Below are positions 8,857 to 17,598 of a DNA stretch of 22,488 nt, piece by piece. The notes below the pieces were generated by a model that was not told the origin of the DNA, did not search any database, and worked only from the letters and a program-made list of their open reading frames with translations. Numbering within the stretch: position 1 is the stretch's first letter; each line of letters opens with the position of its first letter. This DNA is from a virus: positions 1-22,488 of the IMG/VR virus record IMGVR_UViG_3300025880_000129, one strand, 5' to 3'. Made by a program: the position numbers and the translations under genes.

Positions 8857-9461
8857 TATGTAATAACCTCTCTAACATCAAATGAAATACTATAAAAACC
8901 ACTGGCATCCGTTGAGTACATAATTTCGTTGTTTTCTAAATATACAGTAAAACTTGGTTTGTTTACAGTGACAGCTTCATTATTTGCTAGAGAAGTTACT
9001 AGGTTTGGGGATATTTGCAGAGTCAATGCACCACTGCTATTAGCATCAATATTATTTTGCACCATATAAACTTTACTATGATTGGCAAACTTAATTAAAT
9101 CTCCAGCCTTTAAAGCACCTGTTTGGTTCGCTGTAAAGCCATCTAAGGCTATAGAAGAATCTCCTGATGAAAATGTACCATTGACCAATATATCTGTTTC
9201 TGACTTGCCTGCACCTAAGTTATCTAATGGTGCGACTATTGTAAAGTCCTCAAAAGAACCTTTTTGTTTTTGTAAAAATGCAAATATTTCTTGAGACTTT
9301 TCTTGTTGTAATGGAGGCATTGCAACTGTAAAAGAAAAATACTGAGCACCTATTTGTCTGACTTGTTTTTTACCTGATAGTGTTTGATTTAATAGAGTGG
9401 GTCTGTTGTCTTTAAAATTAAGACTCCTAAAATTTGGGTCTGTTGGAAATTGTCCTGACAT
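8856..9461 (-). CDS. Minor / distal tail protein
   Basis: A 201-residue protein directly after the tape measure gene and before the DUF2163-like protein, the slot normally held by a distal tail or tape-measure-proximal minor tail protein. It has no signal peptide or membrane segment. The first ~90 residues include a Q-rich stretch and an alternating beta pattern (YFSFTVAMPPL, then FEDFTIVAPL), and the C-terminus ends in beta strands (FYSISFDVREVIT), consistent with a beta-rich structural subunit. Its ATG overlaps the tape measure stop by one base (TAATG), and its TAG overlaps the next GTG. The exact family is not recognised, so the role comes mainly from position. Confidence 0.7.
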   Translation of the reverse strand: MSGQFPTDPNFRSLNFKDNRPTLLNQTLSGKKQVRQIGAQYFSFTVAMPPLQQEKSQEIFAFLQKQKGSFEDFTIVAPLDNLGAGKSETDILVNGTFSSGDSSIALDGFTANQTGALKAGDLIKFANHSKVYMVQNNIDANSSGALTLQISPNLVTSLANNEAVTVNKPSFTVYLENNEIMYSTDASGFYSISFDVREVIT

Positions 9462-11440
9462 TATACTATTCCCATTTTGCCTTGATTATTCATGGCATTG
9501 TTTATGATTGATGTTATCAATCCTTTTCTTGATGCTAGTAACTGGTCAAAGCCAGCAGCATCTACTGTTGATATATTGAAGTTTACTGTAGGTGCTTGTT
9601 GTTGTGTTTGTTGAGGTTGTGTTTTTGTATGATCTATAACAGTTTCATTTGGATGTAAAACACTTAAAAAGCCACCTTTGTTATCCAGGCCGCCTGATCT
9701 TGAGCCAAAGCCTGTAAAACCTCCACCATTTCCTGATGGTATAGAATCAAACAAAGAACCTCCATCAGTTAATTTATCAAACTCTCTGCCAGCAGTAAAT
9801 TTATCTCTTGCTATAGATATGCTACTACCAAATGATGCAAACATTTTATCAAGCAATAGTTTTTGTATAGCTATTCTTATTAGCTCTCTAACGATAGAAG
9901 TAGCAAAATCTTTAAAACTTGCCTTACCTTTTTCTAAAAATTCCATGGTTAAATTTGATATTCCGTCATACGACTTTTTCATAATATCACTAATCTCGTC
10001 TTGCATGGTTTTTATTGAGGTAACAAATTTTCCATAACCTTTTTCAGCATCTAATAAAAACTTTTCAAATGCTGCTAATTTACCAAAACCAGTCTCATCA
10101 TCCTCTTCTCCAGTTCTGCCGAGAAGTACATCCATGATAGATGGAATTTTCATTTTCTCAATTTTTTTATTTAAAAAGTGCTCAGCAGAATCAGCTATTG
10201 CTTCTAGTTTTTTCTTGTTAGACTCTTGTGCAGATTTAGGGTCACTAAATAAAATTAACTCATCTAAAGGGTTTGAACCAAATGCAACCTTAATTCTATT
10301 AATTTCTTGTATTAATTTATTAAATTGACTTAAAATAAAATTAAAAGAATCAAAAAACATATTTTTTAATGGCAATATAAATAGGTCATGTGCATAACCT
10401 CTCATCTTTATATAACCCTCAGCAAATTTTAAGGCAAGATAGGGAATCCATTTTGTTGCCACTAATTGAAAAACAAAAACTAATTCATTTCTAAATACAT
10501 AAGCTGCTGTAGCTAAAGCAGTTAATCCAATAATTGCAACAGTAAATGGGTTTGCAGAAAAAGCTGCTAGTAAAGCAAATTTAAGGGCTATAATTGAATT
10601 CGTTGCTGCTATTGCAAGGGGAGGAATAGCTACAAGAACAGGTATTAATAAAGCATCCATATTGTTTGCTAAGAAACCTACAGCACCAGCCATTTTTGAA
10701 AATACCCCAGTTGCCTCTTCTATATCACCAATCATAAATTGGAAATTATTACGCAGAGCAACAGCAGCCTGACCAAGAGTCATGGGCATTTTATTTATTT
10801 GCTCATTAGTCTCTTTAGTGCCTTTAATAAGAATTGGCATAACTGTTTCTGCTGTTAGCTTACCAGCATGACCAAATTCTCTAAGTTCACCAATGGTCAT
10901 ATTTAAACCATCAGCTAACATTTTTGTCAGAATGGTATTGTTTTCCATTACTGACCTAAGTTCGTCTCCTCTTAAAGCTCCTGAAGCTAAACCCTGAGCT
11001 AACTGTCTAGCAGAGTTATTTGCCTCTTGAGCATGAGAACCAGCAATAATAAAGGTATTTGCTACAGTTTGGGTGGCATCAGCAACATCTCTTTGAGTAG
11101 CACCCAAATGTTCTGTAGCTAAAGCAAGCCTTGTATATAACATAGCAACAGCATCAAAGTCTGATCTTGAATCAGATGCTATTCTTCTCATCTGATTCAT
11201 AGCTGATGAAGTCTTATCTGCACTACCAGTTAAGGCGTTCATTCTGTTTTTTACGCCAATCATAACATTGGCAGCTTCAGCTATTTCTTTGACACTAAAA
11301 GCACCGACTAAAACAGTCGCAATTCTTTTTACAGAATTTTCCGCAGATTTTGCATTTTTATTAAAACTATCAAACGCCTTTTTGGATTGATCTGACCCAA
11401 ATATTCTCAGTAATAAATCTGTTTTACCTGCTGCTCGCAT
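9461..11440 (-). CDS. Tail tape measure protein (lambda gpH-like)
   Basis: A 659-residue tape measure protein. It is expected to set tail length, with the two chaperone products coating it during assembly, and to leave through the tail at DNA ejection. Residues ~40-260 match the lambda-family tape-measure N-terminal domain (VKNRMNALTGSADK, then LASGALRGDELRSVMEN). Residues ~262-330 form a long hydrophobic region able to insert in a membrane. The C-terminus has the typical Gly-rich GGGFTGFGSRSGG and FLSVLHPNETVIDHTK elements. At 659 residues it is somewhat shorter than lambda gpH, implying a modest tail length. The start is ATG at 11438-11440 with AAGGA about 8 bases upstream. It lies inside the frameshifted end of the chaperone gene (17-bp overlap), the classic G-T/H arrangement. 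Confidence 0.93.
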   Translation of the reverse strand: MRAAGKTDLLLRIFGSDQSKKAFDSFNKNAKSAENSVKRIATVLVGAFSVKEIAEAANVMIGVKNRMNALTGSADKTSSAMNQMRRIASDSRSDFDAVAMLYTRLALATEHLGATQRDVADATQTVANTFIIAGSHAQEANNSARQLAQGLASGALRGDELRSVMENNTILTKMLADGLNMTIGELREFGHAGKLTAETVMPILIKGTKETNEQINKMPMTLGQAAVALRNNFQFMIGDIEEATGVFSKMAGAVGFLANNMDALLIPVLVAIPPLAIAATNSIIALKFALLAAFSANPFTVAIIGLTALATAAYVFRNELVFVFQLVATKWIPYLALKFAEGYIKMRGYAHDLFILPLKNMFFDSFNFILSQFNKLIQEINRIKVAFGSNPLDELILFSDPKSAQESNKKKLEAIADSAEHFLNKKIEKMKIPSIMDVLLGRTGEEDDETGFGKLAAFEKFLLDAEKGYGKFVTSIKTMQDEISDIMKKSYDGISNLTMEFLEKGKASFKDFATSIVRELIRIAIQKLLLDKMFASFGSSISIARDKFTAGREFDKLTDGGSLFDSIPSGNGGGFTGFGSRSGGLDNKGGFLSVLHPNETVIDHTKTQPQQTQQQAPTVNFNISTVDAAGFDQLLASRKGLITSIINNAMNNQGKMGIV

Positions 11441-11911
11441 TTCTTTCTTCCTTTATTTCAAGATAAGCCAACCAACCCTGAAACTCCTCAACTGTCATCT
11501 CTTCAATTTCAGTTAAGGTTTTGTTTAGTTTTTCAGCTAGTGCATATTTTATGTATAGCTGCTCATCTTCAATTACTTTTTTTTAACTTCTTCCTGAGAG
11601 ACATTGTTCATCATCTCACTAGAAACTCTAATTAATACATCTCTGTCTACCTTCTCCAATAAGGTTTTTTTATCAGCGATTGTAAATAACTTTTCTCCAG
11701 CCTCGTCTAATGCTTTATAAATTAAAACATAAACTAAAAGCTGAACCTCGTCATCTTTAGCTAATTTCATAAATTTAGAAGTCTCTGAAAGAGTTATTGG
11801 CCTACAATAAATCTTTAAAGCATTATTTTCGTCATCACCCCATTCAGGGACTTCTATAATTTTAGTTTCTAAGCTATCAAAATGTTTTTGTGCGTTATCT
11901 ATAACTGACAT
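11424..11911 (-). CDS. Tail assembly chaperone G-T fusion made by -1 ribosomal frameshift (162 aa)
   Basis: The longer product of the tail chaperone gene. Translation follows the 112-residue frame to the heptamer A AAA AAG just before its stop, slips back one base, and continues for 50 residues to a TAA at 11424-11426. The added tail includes EEFQGWLAYLEIKEER, a typical gpT-like pattern (acidic/aromatic with W-L-A-Y). In lambda and most long-tailed phages such a G-T fusion binds the tape measure and recruits tube subunits, while the short form acts in excess. The extension fills the otherwise empty gap 11441-11572 exactly and overlaps the tape measure start. The frame was translated by hand and is open throughout. 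Use of the shift is an inference from the signals and from family practice. Confidence 0.85.
11534..11561 (-). promoter_or_regulatory. Candidate frameshift-stimulating stem-loop
   Basis: A perfect 6-bp inverted repeat (CAGCTA ... TAGCTG) with a 16-base loop lies 14 bases downstream of the slippery heptamer on the mRNA strand. A downstream hairpin is a common stimulator of -1 frameshifting. The stem is short and its spacing is longer than the usual 5-9 bases, so its role is uncertain. Confidence 0.4.
11573..11911 (-). CDS. Tail assembly chaperone, short form (gpG-like)
   Basis: The zero-frame product, 112 residues, immediately upstream of the tape measure and downstream of the tail tube gene. 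The sequence is acidic and helical, with an early VPEWGDDENNALKIYCRPIT segment; 'EWG....-IYCRPLT' is typical of HK97/lambda-type tail chaperones. It ends VKKK-stop, encoded by the slippery A-run. Its role is to chaperone the tape measure during tail assembly, and it is not expected in the virion. The start is ATG at 11909-11911, four bases after the tail tube stop. The upstream sequence has no strong Shine-Dalgarno, so coupling to the preceding gene is likely. Confidence 0.88.
   Translation of the reverse strand: MSVIDNAQKHFDSLETKIIEVPEWGDDENNALKIYCRPITLSETSKFMKLAKDDEVQLLVYVLIYKALDEAGEKLFTIADKKTLLEKVDRDVLIRVSSEMMNNVSQEEVKKK
11576..11595 (-). promoter_or_regulatory. Programmed -1 frameshift site (A AAA AAG with upstream SD)
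   Basis: On the minus strand eight A's and a G precede the stop, giving codons AAA AAA AAG TAA. The last seven bases are the canonical A AAA AAG slippery heptamer used by E. coli dnaX. An SD-like AGGAAG (11590-11595) begins AGGA about 9 bases before the heptamer, close to the dnaX stimulator spacing. The zero-frame codon after the heptamer is a stop, which should prolong the pause. Confidence 0.85.
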
Positions 11912-11915
11912 TTTT

Positions 11916-12311
11916 TTATACTGTTGTTGTAGTTAAATCGCCAGTACCTTGTACTGTTAGACTTGCTTCAACCATACCATCAAATGAACCAGTCCTTGAA
12001 ACACCAGTAACAATAGCTGAACCACTGTAATAAGTATCTGAAGCACCTGCTGGATATAGATTAATCTCTATAGTATTTCCAACTACAAAAGCACCTTGAC
12101 CATTAGTGTCGCTATCATCCCAAAAAACATCCAATGAACCTGAGAAAGATTTTAATGTAGCCACATGAGTTCTGCTTCCATCACCCATAGCTGTATCTTC
12201 AACAGTGTCACTTGTATGTTCTAAAGAATATGACTTAACTTCACCAACGATATTAGTTCCACCAGTAGTACCTAGCTTAACAATACCATCATTTCCTTTA
12301 AATGTTGACAT
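11916..12311 (-). CDS. Major tail tube protein
   Basis: A 131-residue beta-rich protein just upstream of the tail chaperones, the standard position of the major tail protein (lambda V analogue). The sequence begins MSTFKGNDGIVKLG and continues with SYSLEHTSDTVEDTAMGD, then strands ending in VSRTGSFDGMVEASLTVQGTGDL. This matches the TP901-1-type tail tube pattern, in which residues after the first strand specify the ring interface. Many copies would stack around the tape measure to form the tube. The length is at the short end for siphophage tube proteins, and no extra Ig-like decoration domain is present. The start ATG lies within the end of the 56-aa gene (14-bp overlap). Confidence 0.88.
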   Translation of the reverse strand: MSTFKGNDGIVKLGTTGGTNIVGEVKSYSLEHTSDTVEDTAMGDGSRTHVATLKSFSGSLDVFWDDSDTNGQGAFVVGNTIEINLYPAGASDTYYSGSAIVTGVSRTGSFDGMVEASLTVQGTGDLTTTTV

Positions 12312-13541: not shown

Positions 13542-14798
13542 TTATGCACCATCATTTGATACACAGAAGCTAACTGCGTGTCTTACAGCAACATCAACAG
13601 TTTGTAGAGCAACAATTCTTACTCCACCTGAAGTTGATAATGCATAAGGATCAACAGTAATATCTAAGCCACCATACATACCAATTAATAGGTCTGCAAA
13701 ATTACCAAAGTAGAAATCTCCACTTGTTACTTGGTTACTTCTGACAACGTTATAGCCATTCATGCTATTGTCAGGATTAACAACAAATTGAGCAGTATTA
13801 GTTGCTTTTTCAGTTGTTTTTAAAGTACCAAAGTCAGCAGGTCTACAAATGTAACCTAAAGAACCACTTAGAGCATTGTCATTAGCGATTGCAGATTCCA
13901 TAGCCACGATCTCAGCCCATGTTGGGTTAGCAGCAGCAAATGTAGTAGTGTTAATACCTGTAGTATTAGAAATACCTGTAGGTTGACCACTTGAACCTGA
14001 ACCAGCCAAAGCACCTAAGTCAATTGCAGTAGCGATTGATTTTGTTAGGTCATCTCTGATTAAGTTCTCAACATCTAATGATGATTGTTGTAACAAAAGT
14101 CTTGTTGCATCAGTGAAAGCACCAATTACTTTAGGACTCATTGTTACTGAACCAGCAGTAAATTCACTTTCAGCAGCAGGGTTGCCTTCTGTAGCAATCC
14201 AACCAGCAGATGAAGCAGCAGTTTTCTTAGGTATTACAACATTTCCTTGTAATCCTCTAAGCATTGTTGCTCCAGCTTGCATTACTGAAGATTCGTTTCT
14301 TAATACATCAATAAATGAATCTCCTCTGTAATCTTCAGCGATTAAAGTTGAGTCATCAGATGTGTTTAAGTCTCTTTTGCCCCAAGTTCTTAGGACATCA
14401 GCAGGCAACATGATACCTTGAGCATCTTTACCATACTGTCTTGCAGCTTCAGCAGAACATTCAAATTCAAATGCTGCATCTTGTTGTGCTTTTCTGTCAG
14501 ATGGGTTAGCCATAGCTCTGATAGCTTTTACTAGGCTAAATTCTCTAACTTCTTCTTTGCTCATTCCAATTTCTGATGGAGTTTCTAAAGGAGTGTCATT
14601 AGAAATATTTTCTAATAATACGCCTCTAAATTCTTCAACAGAGATACCATTTGAAATGGCTTTGTCAGCTAAATCTCTTTTATTGTGTCTAGCTGCTAAA
14701 TCTATAATCTCTTTTGAGTTTCTTTTAAATTCAGCTTTAGCTTCGTCAATAGTTTGAGTTCTAACTTCTTCTATATTTATGTCTTTATTTTCTGACAT
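13542..14798 (-). CDS. Major capsid protein made from internal start (418 aa)
   Basis: Within the long protease-capsid frame an ATG at 14796-14798 (MSENKDINIEEV) has a near-ideal RBS, AAGGAG, six bases upstream. Starting here gives a 418-residue protein with the normal architecture of an HK97-type capsid subunit: a charged, helical first ~100 residues like the delta/scaffold domain, then the capsid fold (TEGNPAAESEFTAGSVTMSP, DDLTKSIATAIDLGALAGSGS, and a C-terminal VRHAVSFCVSNDG strand). Hundreds of copies are needed per head, so independent high-level initiation at this site makes biological sense. The N-terminal segment would be removed by the protease. The cleavage position cannot be set by eye. 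Confidence 0.75.
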   Translation of the reverse strand: MSENKDINIEEVRTQTIDEAKAEFKRNSKEIIDLAARHNKRDLADKAISNGISVEEFRGVLLENISNDTPLETPSEIGMSKEEVREFSLVKAIRAMANPSDRKAQQDAAFEFECSAEAARQYGKDAQGIMLPADVLRTWGKRDLNTSDDSTLIAEDYRGDSFIDVLRNESSVMQAGATMLRGLQGNVVIPKKTAASSAGWIATEGNPAAESEFTAGSVTMSPKVIGAFTDATRLLLQQSSLDVENLIRDDLTKSIATAIDLGALAGSGSSGQPTGISNTTGINTTTFAAANPTWAEIVAMESAIANDNALSGSLGYICRPADFGTLKTTEKATNTAQFVVNPDNSMNGYNVVRSNQVTSGDFYFGNFADLLIGMYGGLDITVDPYALSTSGGVRIVALQTVDVAVRHAVSFCVSNDGA

Positions 14799-16112
14799 TG
14801 TTATCTCCTTAAAGTTAATATTATTTTTATCTTCAGAACGACCAACGCCAACAAGTCTTGACTGGTCAGCAGGGACTGATACAGAGGAAACCTCCATAGG
14901 AGTCCACTTAGCTTTATAGTAAGTCTCACCTTTGTCTTCATATCGTTCTAATTTATCAATGCGATAACCTACAGATATGTTCATCCGTATGCCATCTTTT
15001 ACATCTTCAAACACTTCTTGAGCCAAAGCAGATTTTCCAAATCTGACTACTGCTAAAGACCTTTTGGCAGTCTCATCTAGTTTGAATTCTTCAATCACAC
15101 CTATTTGCTTGGTCATATCATGATCAAGTAATAATGGTGCTCTTCCTGAGTTAATAAACTCCATGTTTATATCCCCAGCAGAATGTCCCAGGACTTCCAT
15201 CCCAAAACTTCTTTCAACAGGTTCTTCAGAAGAAACGCCTACACGAACCACTCTATTTTCTTCATCAAGATAAGAGTGCTTGGATAAATCAATAGTTCTA
15301 TATTTCATAGGCATATCAATTACTTTCCTTTCTTCTTCACTTGATTCAGTCATAGAAACTTCGTCAGTCATTTCCAATTCTTCACCTTCATGTTCTACAT
15401 CCTCATGCTTTGCAAATTCAACGATAACTTTATCATCAGTTTCACTCACATTAAGGATATGTCTATCTTCTTTATTCATAGATTTCTCCTCTTCATTTGT
15501 TAATAAAGGATGTTTTTCCAATTCATTAGAATTGAAATCGTTTAAATCCCTAATGGGATTAATTTTTGTTAAAGTGCTGAACTTATGTCCTACCTCAGTA
15601 TCTGTAGGTTCACCACTTCTATAAACTTGTATTAATGCAGCAGGGTCATCTGAAGTTCCTGTAATTACAAAATCACTATCAGGAACATTAATTGTTCCAT
15701 CTCTTTCAATTTTAATAATTTTACCTCTAGCCCTACCACCTGAACTATTCCAACTTACAAAATCACCAACCTTTAGCCCATCAGGCATAGCTCTATCTTC
15801 TTCGTTTTTCATTTGATTTACCAATTTTTTTGACCAGCTAAATCCAGCATCCCCACCCCATAGTGCCCATGCTATTCTTCCGTTAGATGGATATCCATCC
15901 TCTCCTGGTCTAAATCCTTGAGCTTTCTTGTCTACCTCATGCCTACTAAAAAAACTATACATTCTTTTTATAGTTTCGTCAGATAGGTTTTCGCCATTTA
16001 AGATTTGATTTGCCCTCTCAGCACCAATTCTAGTTCCACCCCTACCATGCTCTTTACGCCAATCTAATCCTTTTCTAGCTTCTGACTTCATGCCTTGAGT
16101 AGGTTTACTCAT
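13542..16112 (-). CDS. Joined N-terminal domains + HK97-type prohead protease + major capsid protein
   Basis: One uninterrupted frame. I choose ATG at 16110-16112 (856 aa), which has GGAG nine bases upstream and overlaps the portal stop by 8 bases. An upstream in-frame ATG at 16142 gives 866 aa but has no RBS. By residue (856-aa form): ~10-100 is a conserved phage domain of unknown function (WRKEHGRGGTRIG, GRIAWALWGGDAG). ~114-165 resembles an Hva1/TUDOR-type small barrel (KVGDFVSWNSSGGRARGKI). ~260-430 is an HK97-type S/H protease with His331 in LLLDHD, Ser380 in RMNISVGYR and a PMEVSSVSVPA element. From 439 on is an HK97-fold major capsid protein with a helical delta-domain-like N-terminus. 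Two strong internal RBSs suggest that protease and capsid are also made separately. The full fusion may be a minor product that is incorporated in the prohead. Confidence 0.85.
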   Translation of the reverse strand: MSKPTQGMKSEARKGLDWRKEHGRGGTRIGAERANQILNGENLSDETIKRMYSFFSRHEVDKKAQGFRPGEDGYPSNGRIAWALWGGDAGFSWSKKLVNQMKNEEDRAMPDGLKVGDFVSWNSSGGRARGKIIKIERDGTINVPDSDFVITGTSDDPAALIQVYRSGEPTDTEVGHKFSTLTKINPIRDLNDFNSNELEKHPLLTNEEEKSMNKEDRHILNVSETDDKVIVEFAKHEDVEHEGEELEMTDEVSMTESSEEERKVIDMPMKYRTIDLSKHSYLDEENRVVRVGVSSEEPVERSFGMEVLGHSAGDINMEFINSGRAPLLLDHDMTKQIGVIEEFKLDETAKRSLAVVRFGKSALAQEVFEDVKDGIRMNISVGYRIDKLERYEDKGETYYKAKWTPMEVSSVSVPADQSRLVGVGRSEDKNNINFKEITMSENKDINIEEVRTQTIDEAKAEFKRNSKEIIDLAARHNKRDLADKAISNGISVEEFRGVLLENISNDTPLETPSEIGMSKEEVREFSLVKAIRAMANPSDRKAQQDAAFEFECSAEAARQYGKDAQGIMLPADVLRTWGKRDLNTSDDSTLIAEDYRGDSFIDVLRNESSVMQAGATMLRGLQGNVVIPKKTAASSAGWIATEGNPAAESEFTAGSVTMSPKVIGAFTDATRLLLQQSSLDVENLIRDDLTKSIATAIDLGALAGSGSSGQPTGISNTTGINTTTFAAANPTWAEIVAMESAIANDNALSGSLGYICRPADFGTLKTTEKATNTAQFVVNPDNSMNGYNVVRSNQVTSGDFYFGNFADLLIGMYGGLDITVDPYALSTSGGVRIVALQTVDVAVRHAVSFCVSNDGA
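14805..14810 (-). promoter_or_regulatory. Strong internal ribosome binding site for capsid start
   Basis: AAGGAG on the minus strand, six bases before the ATG at 14796-14798. It lies inside codons of the upstream frame (Asn-Phe-Lys-Glu-Ile-Thr), so it is read through by the long product. It is among the best SD matches in the whole late operon. Confidence 0.8.
15486..15491 (-). promoter_or_regulatory. Internal ribosome binding site for protease start
   Basis: GAGGAG on the minus strand, six bases before an in-frame ATG at 15477-15479 (MNKEDRHILNVSE). Initiation here gives a 645-residue protease-capsid form lacking the N-terminal unknown and TUDOR-like domains. The ATG sits in the linker between those domains and the protease. 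Confidence 0.65.
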
Positions 16113-17598
16113 CTTCGTCATCTCCGCCTTGTATCTTTGCATCTACAGGGTTCTTTTGACCAAATGGTTGATATGCTAGTTCAATGTCATATTGTTTTGC
16201 TAGTTCTATTTCTTTTTGATGTTGTTCAAATAATTCTTCTGTATCTCTTCCATAACTACTACTGATATCAGCATAAGTAAGTGTGCCATTCTGTAAACCT
16301 ATAACATTTGCCTGCATTTCTTTTAAAGGGTCAATCCAAGCAAAACTTCTTGGTATATAGTTCACTGATTTTGCAAATTTATCTACTTTAGACATGGGTA
16401 AATTTATATAACCATTTGATATAGACATTTCTAACCATGACTTGAATATTGGGTCTACAAAATGATCTATAACAAATTGCTGATATATCTGATACATGCT
16501 TCTGTCTTCTAAAGCACCTTGTCTTATTGAGCTGTAATTTACTGATGTAAGGTCATTACTTAGAGAGTGATAAGAAATATTTAAACCTGAAGCAATACTT
16601 CTTAATACGCTAGTTGTAAAAGAATCAAAAGCAGTAGTTGGATGCGTTGGGTCAAAAGCCTTGAAATCCATACCTTGTGGAAGCTGCTCAAAGACCCCAG
16701 CTTGTGCGTTCATTGTAGGGTTGAAGGTGTCAGTATATTCACCATCACCAACATAACCATCTCCATCAGGAGAGGTAAAGAAACCCATTTTAGATGCACC
16801 AACTCTAGCTGCAACTATTTCTGCTTCTAAATAACCATTTAACATTTTCACATTAGCCATTGCTGTAGCAACCAAAGAAACACCTCTAGTTTGTTCTGCT
16901 CTAGTAGGTAAGTAAGCATGGATAATCTCGTCAGCAGGGACTCTAATGTGTTGTGCTTGAGCTAAATAAACCCTATCAAAAGGATGGTCTTTAAATAAGT
17001 GATAAGCAACTGGTTTGTCATACTTATCTACTTCCACACCCATCTTAATACGATTGCCAGTAGCTTTATAAATATCATTTTTATTTTCATCTAAATGATC
17101 TGATTCTAAAAATTGTAGTTCAAAACCAAAAGGCGAATCCTTCTTTTTGATTTTTCTAACCAATACTTCTCCATCTCTACAAAGAGATTCAATAAATATT
17201 TTTTGACAGTCCAAGAATGATAATCTTCCATTAGTTGTGCAATTACCAACTTTACCCCATTGTTTCCAGGCATCTTCAATGAGCTGGTTTCCAGCAATGT
17301 CTAATGAACCATTATCATCACGACCTTTGCTAGAAACTCTTATGCCATGCTTACCGATAACATTAGATACCATCAGGTTAAGGTATCTTGCAATATAGCT
17401 ATCGTTTCTTGCTAACTCTCTTGCTCTATCTCTTAATATTCTTATGTTATCTTTTATTTCAGCATCAGCACTTGTAGATGTGGTAACGAAGTCAGCAAAA
17501 AGCCTGCCAGTGTTAGCACCAGTGTAACTTCTTCTATATGCTTGTCTTTTTTTCTTTTTAGGCTCATTAATGCCTAATATTCTGTTATACCACGCCAT
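16105..17598 (-). CDS. Portal protein (lambda gpB family)
   Basis: A 497-residue protein of the lambda-type portal family, forming the dodecameric ring at one capsid vertex through which DNA enters and leaves. The N-terminus is basic (PKKKKRQAYRRSY), then come DFVTTSTSADAEIKDNIRILRDRARELARND and YLNLMVSNVIGKHGIRV, highly typical of this family. The middle has LPTRAEQTRGVSLVATAMAN, and the stem/crown region has GLNISYHSLSNDLTSVNYSSIRQG. Length is close to lambda gpB. The C-terminus is acidic (GGDDEDE). The ATG at 17596-17598 shares a base with the previous stop (TAATG), and the end overlaps the protease-capsid gene by 8 bases from its preferred start. Confidence 0.95.
   Translation of the reverse strand: MAWYNRILGINEPKKKKRQAYRRSYTGANTGRLFADFVTTSTSADAEIKDNIRILRDRARELARNDSYIARYLNLMVSNVIGKHGIRVSSKGRDDNGSLDIAGNQLIEDAWKQWGKVGNCTTNGRLSFLDCQKIFIESLCRDGEVLVRKIKKKDSPFGFELQFLESDHLDENKNDIYKATGNRIKMGVEVDKYDKPVAYHLFKDHPFDRVYLAQAQHIRVPADEIIHAYLPTRAEQTRGVSLVATAMANVKMLNGYLEAEIVAARVGASKMGFFTSPDGDGYVGDGEYTDTFNPTMNAQAGVFEQLPQGMDFKAFDPTHPTTAFDSFTTSVLRSIASGLNISYHSLSNDLTSVNYSSIRQGALEDRSMYQIYQQFVIDHFVDPIFKSWLEMSISNGYINLPMSKVDKFAKSVNYIPRSFAWIDPLKEMQANVIGLQNGTLTYADISSSYGRDTEELFEQHQKEIELAKQYDIELAYQPFGQKNPVDAKIQGGDDEDE

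What the first reader, a model, noticed from the sequence alone, without database searches (positions are those of the whole stretch)
11424..11911. Complete dnaX-style -1 frameshift signal in the tail chaperone gene
Seen: A AAA AAG directly before the zero-frame stop, SD-like AGGAAG about 9 bases upstream, a perfect 6-bp inverted repeat 14 bases downstream, and a 50-codon -1 frame that fills the gap and ends 17 bases inside the tape measure gene. Known: lambda G/G-T uses frameshifting in exactly this position, though with a different heptamer; dnaX uses this heptamer with an upstream SD. The combination of a dnaX-type three-part signal with a tail chaperone is notable. An automated annotation would miss the gpT part.
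Basis: partly seen in the sequence, partly recalled or inferred. Interest (0 to 1): 0.75.

Follow-up and report, generated by a model that had tools for sequence, protein, structure and literature searches.

The report
Frameshift-made tail chaperone in marine phage
This uncultivated marine phage almost certainly makes a second, longer version of its tail-assembly chaperone by having some ribosomes slip back one base at a run of A's; this is a well-known trick of long-tailed phages, here with a helper signal arranged as in the bacterial gene dnaX, and existing gene annotations miss the extra piece.

Summary
The 112-aa gene upstream of the tape measure ends GTT AAA AAA AAG TAA. A 50-codon -1 frame follows and stops 17 bases inside the tape-measure gene. 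Of 141 distinct homologous regions, 141 carry an in-frame X_XXY_YYZ heptamer at the zero-frame stop followed by a gpT-like -1 extension. The extension evolves as protein only in the -1 frame (pN/pS 0.14, against 0.91 and 2.05 in the other two frames). The heptamer is kept while the preceding codon changes among nine amino acids and the A-run varies from 6 to 9, so ribosomal slippage is favoured over RNA-polymerase slippage. The upstream SD-like element is under synonymous constraint here. In two outgroup clades it exceeds synonymous expectation (20/23 and 19/25 representatives against 7.8 and 5.9). The downstream hairpin is plausible but unproven: it starts 14 nt away and no pair changes on both sides. 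Lambda-type G/G-T frameshifting, including A_AAA_AAG in this gene, is already known. This is a new member of a known kind; the modestly new point is that dnaX-like SD stimulation recurs in marine-phage tail chaperones. No shifted product has been measured.

The parts
11573..11911 (-). Tail assembly chaperone, zero-frame product (gpG-like), 112 aa
   Evidence: ORF; PHROG 344 and 16513 'tail assembly chaperone'; Pfam Phage_TAC_13 below cut-off; lies between tail tube and tape measure
11590..11595 (-). Internal SD-like AGGAAG (core AGGA), 9 nt (AGGA) or 7 nt (AGGAAG) before the heptamer
   Evidence: Q106 codon CAG in all 75 distinct clade members although CAG is 50 of 231 Gln codons in the window; codons 106-112 are the least synonymously variable stretch of the gene
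11576..11582 (-). Slippery heptamer A_AAA_AAG (within A8G), directly before the zero-frame TAA
   Evidence: 141/141 distinct homologous regions carry an in-frame X_XXY_YYZ at this place; the codon before it always ends in A while its amino acid changes
11534..11561 (-). Candidate downstream hairpin (6 bp CAGCTA/TAGCTG plus inner 4 bp), starts 14 nt after the heptamer
   Evidence: MFE -7.6 kcal/mol, z -1.45; mean z -1.42 against synonymous recoding in 16 clade representatives; 96.9% of outer-helix cells paired but no change on both sides
11424..11576 (-). -1 frame gpT-like extension VIEDEQ...NASSR, 50 aa, with stop TAA at 11426..11424
   Evidence: pN/pS 0.141 in the -1 frame and no stops; homologous to the T part of Bcep176 gp69' (hhalign E 7e-8); AF2 two-helix hairpin, pLDDT 90.8
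9461..11440 (-). Tape measure protein, 659 aa; its start overlaps the end of the extension by 17 bases
   Evidence: Pfam TMP_3 E 1.5e-48; PHROG 339
11916..12311 (-). Tail tube (major tail) protein, immediately upstream
   Evidence: Pfam Phage_tail_2 E 5e-6

Best explanation
The gene is the tail assembly chaperone of a lambda-like siphophage. Most ribosomes stop at TAA and give the 112-aa G form. A minority, decoding AAA-AAG in the P and A sites, slip back one base on A_AAA_AAG and read on for 50 codons, giving a 162-aa G-T fusion. Pairing of AGGA with the 3' end of 16S rRNA (and perhaps a downstream hairpin) pauses or strains the ribosome and raises the slip rate. By analogy with lambda, many G and few G-T coat the tape measure, and the T part recruits tail-tube subunits. 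Shown here: the conserved heptamer, protein-level selection on the -1 frame, and synonymous constraint on the SD-like element. Inferred: actual slippage, its rate, the hairpin's role and the protein functions.
For: Heptamer at the stop in 141/141 distinct regions: A_AAA_AAG 90, A_AAA_AAC 48, A_AAA_AAT 2, G_GGA_AAC 1. -1 frame extension: pN/pS 0.141 and no stops in 43 codons, against 0.911 and 2.047 with several stops in the other frames. No ATG/GTG/TTG near the start of the window's extension. The T part matches Bcep176 gp69' (noted 'lambda T equivalent') with hhalign E 7e-8 and the start of lambda gpT weakly in the same register. PHROG 16513 'tail assembly chaperone' aligns across the junction, residues 3-153. 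RcCronus, Bcep176 and KS9 relatives are annotated as joined genes. SD element. Heptamer conserved independently of A-run length.
Against: No expression data. The SD in this phage is weak (4 bp). The hairpin lies further downstream than in proven cases and shows no compensatory change. SD enrichment across deeply separated lineages is modest in the window's own wider set (10 of 21 clusters against 6.7 expected). Host and its anti-SD are unknown.
Confidence: 0.93

Rival explanations
1. The G-T fusion is made by RNA-polymerase slippage on the A8 run: some transcripts carry nine A's, which gives the identical VKKKV junction.
For: The run here is A8; runs of more than 7 A are known for transcriptional realignment (PMC3711429). 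The fusion protein would be the same, so mass spectrometry of the junction cannot tell the two apart.
Against: Among 219 distinct sites the A-run is 6 in 20, 7 in 91, 8 in 103 and 9 in 4, while the six-A heptamer in the right frame is constant and the preceding codon varies over nine amino acids, always NNA. RcCronus and R4C use G_GGA_AAC. An SD-like element has no known role in polymerase slippage.
Confidence: 0.05
2. The extension is a separate small protein made by re-initiation or an internal start, not a fusion.
For: The frame is open and conserved; in 80 of 219 related sites some ATG/GTG/TTG lies between the upstream -1 stop and codon 10.
Against: In the window the -1 frame has no ATG before Met27, which lies after the conserved LAEKLNKT motif. 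The heptamer coincides with the opening of the frame in all relatives, which a separate gene would not need.
Confidence: 0.01
3. Signal without function: the heptamer is a relic or a sequencing/assembly frameshift and only G is made.
For: A homopolymer site is prone to indel errors.
Against: 248 loci from independent samples and isolates have the same out-of-frame arrangement; the -1 frame is under purifying selection comparable to the G frame (0.141 against 0.118).
Confidence: 0.01

Closest known systems
Phage lambda G/G-T tail assembly chaperone frameshift (and relatives, Xu et al. 2004 as cited in PMC3483164 and PMC5009743)
   Same: Position between major tail protein and tape measure; -1 slip on X_XXY_YYZ near the end of G; gpT-like C-terminal extension overlapping the start of the tape-measure gene
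   Different: Heptamer A_AAA_AAG instead of G_GGA_AAG; directly at the stop rather than 5 codons before; extension 50 aa rather than 144 aa; SD-like element upstream, absent in lambda by the same rule
Burkholderia phages Bcep176 gp69/gp69' and KS9
   Same: Same gene, A_AAA_AAG or A_AAA_AAA, GAGGA upstream, homologous T part
   Different: Longer extension (103 aa); heptamer 11 codons before the stop
E. coli dnaX -1 frameshift (gamma/tau)
   Same: A_AAA_AAG with an upstream SD-like element and a downstream hairpin (PMC3711429)
   Different: In dnaX the shift shortens the product; the SD is stronger; the hairpin is closer. Not homologous: resemblance of signal only
Pelagibacter phage HTVC112P/HTVC111P tail chaperone
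   Same: A_AAA_AAG at the stop, usually GAGGA upstream, -1 gpT-like extension
   Different: More canonical three-part signal than in the window, with a 7-bp hairpin starting 5 nt downstream; protein only distantly related; extension not annotated in the records

Membership tests
Lambda G/G-T type tail assembly chaperone frameshift | Gene lies between major tail protein and tape measure | tested here: met
   Tail tube 11916-12311 and tape measure 9461-11440 flank it
Lambda G/G-T type tail assembly chaperone frameshift | In-frame slippery heptamer near the end of G | tested here: met
Lambda G/G-T type tail assembly chaperone frameshift | Conserved protein-coding extension in the -1 frame, related to gpT | tested here: met
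   pN/pS 0.141; hhalign to Bcep176 gp69' T part E 7e-8; lambda gpT itself E 0.0034 but probability only 9.6
Lambda G/G-T type tail assembly chaperone frameshift | Both G and G-T proteins made, in a large excess of G | not testable with these tools
   No expression data
dnaX-type three-part -1 signal | A_AAA_AAG heptamer | tested here: met
dnaX-type three-part -1 signal | SD-like element 6-17 nt before the motif's second base (rule of PMC4066793) | tested here: met
   AGGA at 10 nt by that rule; synonymous constraint; stimulation itself not tested
dnaX-type three-part -1 signal | Downstream hairpin, 4-10 nt after the motif | tested here: inconclusive
   Hairpin starts at 14 nt, z about -1.4, no change on both sides; clear in HTVC112P-like relatives
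Transcriptional slippage cassette | Conserved long homopolymer run irrespective of codon phase | tested here: not met
   Run length 6-9, heptamer phase constant

The most novel reading that the evidence does not exclude
SD-assisted slippage is a general, evolutionarily tuned part of tail-chaperone frameshifting in marine and related phages, gained and shifted in position independently of the protein sequence (AGGA starting in the seventh codon from the end here, GAGGA in the sixth in several other clades), so that rRNA-mRNA pairing helps set the G:G-T ratio.
Probability: 0.45. Interest if true: 0.45.

Novelty: new member of a known kind. Interest (0 to 1): 0.3.

Why it matters
It gives a secure annotation of a 162-aa G-T protein for a large, unannotated group of marine phages, including pelagiphage and roseophage isolates whose records list only G. 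It also supplies hundreds of natural variants of a -1 frameshift signal (heptamer, SD, hairpin), in which the contribution of each stimulator to a structural-protein ratio could be measured.

Tried and rejected
Alignments of nine to eleven very divergent sequences could not seed the collection scan; closer sets worked. RNAalifold over 48 sequences finds only 3 pairs, so no conserved consensus hairpin can be claimed; a second hairpin at about 11518-11486 that lowers the window's 100-nt z-score to -4.1 is not kept in relatives. A Pfam scan of the extension alone found nothing credible; a PDB sequence search found no relative. A class-wide genome search with PHROG 344 gave only five hits in 289 genomes. 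Scans with R4C and Bcep176 G gave one locus each. SD enrichment by synonymous recoding in the window's own wide set is only z 1.9 at 75% clustering, so the SD claim leans on the within-clade constraint and on the two outgroup clades. Xu et al. 2013 is not held in the library and Xu et al. 2004 was not looked up there, so whether they mention SD elements was not checked.

Full report
OBSERVATION. The window is an uncultivated virus record of 22,488 bases with its structural genes on the minus strand in lambda-like order: terminase (GpA family), portal, capsid, joining protein, tail terminator, tail tube, tail chaperone, tape measure, distal tail, hub, and a long 2754-aa ORF. The chaperone gene ends GTT AAA AAA AAG TAA. 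All the numbers in the finding are correct: heptamer A_AAA_AAG at 11582..11576 directly before the stop, AGGAAG at 11595..11590, a perfect 6-bp inverted repeat starting 14 nt downstream, a 50-codon -1 frame, and a stop 17 bases inside the tape-measure ORF. In-frame heptamers are uncommon here (49 of 6706 codon pairs), and this is the only gene with one near its stop.

HOMOLOGUES. The closest 80 relatives in IMG/VR (88-99% identical) all keep A8G-TAA and a -1 extension of 48-54 aa. Widening the search to isolate phages, further virus contigs and bacterial genomes gave 248 loci, 141 of them distinct. Every one has an in-frame X_XXY_YYZ at the zero-frame stop or one codon before it: A_AAA_AAG 90, A_AAA_AAC 48, A_AAA_AAT 2, G_GGA_AAC 1. 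The extensions share a pattern around LA..L.KT..EI..M...E...W.AY. Relatives include Sinorhizobium phage phi3LM21, Pelagibacter phages HTVC026P/111P/112P/202P, Roseobacter phages CRP-406/811/823/831, cyanophage KBS-S-2A, Rhodobacter phage RcCronus, and loci in Rickettsia endosymbiont MAGs and Pseudovibrio. RcCronus, Bcep176 and KS9 are annotated as joined genes; the HTVC, CRP, KBS and LC06 records are not.

THE -1 FRAME IS PROTEIN. Over 43 codons in 29 representatives of the window clade, pN/pS is 0.141 in the -1 frame, against 0.911 (zero) and 2.047 (+1), and only the -1 frame is free of stops; the G frame itself gives 0.118. The extension is predicted with high confidence as two helices (pLDDT 90.8, single sequence). 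It matches the T part of Bcep176 gp69' (hhalign E 7e-8) and, weakly, the first 40 residues of lambda gpT in the same register (E 0.0034, probability 9.6). PHROG 16513 aligns across the junction.

RIBOSOME OR POLYMERASE. Slippage of RNA polymerase on A8 with one added A would give the same VKKKV junction, so the product alone cannot decide. The alignment can. Among 219 distinct sites the A-run is 6, 7, 8 or 9 long (20, 91, 103, 4), the codon that supplies the heptamer's first base is AAA, GAA, GCA, CAA, AGA, GGA, ATA, GTA or TCA, and the heptamer stays in phase. RcCronus and R4C use G_GGA_AAC. What is conserved is a tandem-slip heptamer, not a long run. In E. coli A_AAA_AAG is among the most efficient heptamers (PMC4066793).

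STIMULATORS: SD. The SD-like element meets the published rule (for example AGGA 6-17 nt before the motif's second base; PMC4066793) in 125 of 141 regions. In the window clade Gln106 is CAG in all 75 distinct sequences although CAG is 50 of 231 Gln codons in the window, and codons 106-112 are the least synonymously variable stretch of the gene; part of that stretch is the heptamer itself. Other clades have GAG GAA one codon later, CAA GGA GAT, or AGG GAA, i.e. the motif persists through amino-acid changes. Against synonymous recoding the excess is z 4.0 with 45 clusters but only z 1.9 with 21; codon usage there came from short stretches. Two outgroup clades give clearer results: HTVC112P-like 20 of 23 against 7.8 expected, LC06-like 19 of 25 against 5.9; members are related, so these are not independent tests. 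GAGGA at the same place also occurs in Bcep176, KS9, Nitrincola 1M3-16, Halomonas H4907 and Dinoroseobacter R4C. In the window itself the pairing is weak: 4 bp, -4.3 kcal/mol against a general bacterial 16S end.

STIMULATORS: HAIRPIN. The hairpin (-7.6 kcal/mol) folds only somewhat better than shuffles (z -1.45) and than synonymous recodings (mean z -1.42 over 16 representatives). Its outer helix is 96.9% paired over 48 sequences, but with no pair changed on both sides, and RNAalifold does not recover it. Rare codons AAG, CAG and CTA around its 5' arm and GCT in its 3' arm are nearly fixed, which is compatible with a structural role. It starts 14 nt downstream, outside the 4-10 nt rule. HTVC112P-like phages instead have a 7-bp hairpin starting 5 nt downstream (mean z -2.0). 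I regard the hairpin in this window as possible, not shown.

WHAT IS KNOWN. Low-level -1 frameshifting in this gene is widely conserved in long-tailed phages, with G and G-T binding the tape measure and T binding the major tail protein (PMC5009743). A_AAA_AAG in this gene is already listed for VT1-Sakai, psiM2, PVL, PV83, ul36 and a Borrelia prophage (PMC3483164 citing Xu 2004) and for Paenibacillus phages (PMC6003738). Two tail-chaperone genes measured in reporters shifted at 6 and 7% (PMC3711429). I found no paper in the held library that reports SD elements at tail-chaperone sites, but key papers are not held, so novelty of that point is uncertain.

VERDICT. A real, conserved programmed -1 frameshift; a member of the lambda G/G-T kind; its signal works like dnaX in two of three parts, the third unproven. 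Interest is modest, mainly for the recurrent SD element.

Noticed in passing
L004 and L019 (IMGVR_UViG_3300050343_000089, 65,678 bp): One contig holds two tail-chaperone loci 33.9 kb apart, 97% and 92% identical to the window's protein: two related phage genomes in one contig, by tandem integration or chimeric assembly.
   Followed up: no
window 13542-16142 (-): 866-aa ORF with an HK97-type capsid domain only at residues 607-861; the long N-terminal part reads like a prohead protease, suggesting a protease-capsid fusion (protease part judged by eye, not by a profile hit).
   Followed up: no
L246, L247, L248: Rickettsia endosymbiont MAGs carry tail-chaperone genes of this family with a slippery heptamer and gpT-like -1 extension, i.e. 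probable prophage tail modules.
   Followed up: partly
L269-L348 (HTVC112P-like): Pelagiphage tail chaperones have a fuller three-part signal than the window: GAGGA, A_AAA_AAG and an AGCGACC/GGTCGCT hairpin 5 nt downstream.
   Followed up: partly
window 11567-11556 (-), codons 4-7 of the extension: Nearly fixed rare codons (AAG, CAG, CTA) just downstream of the slip site, more constrained than the hairpin alone requires; the fixed G of AAG/GAG is unpaired in the model.
   Followed up: no
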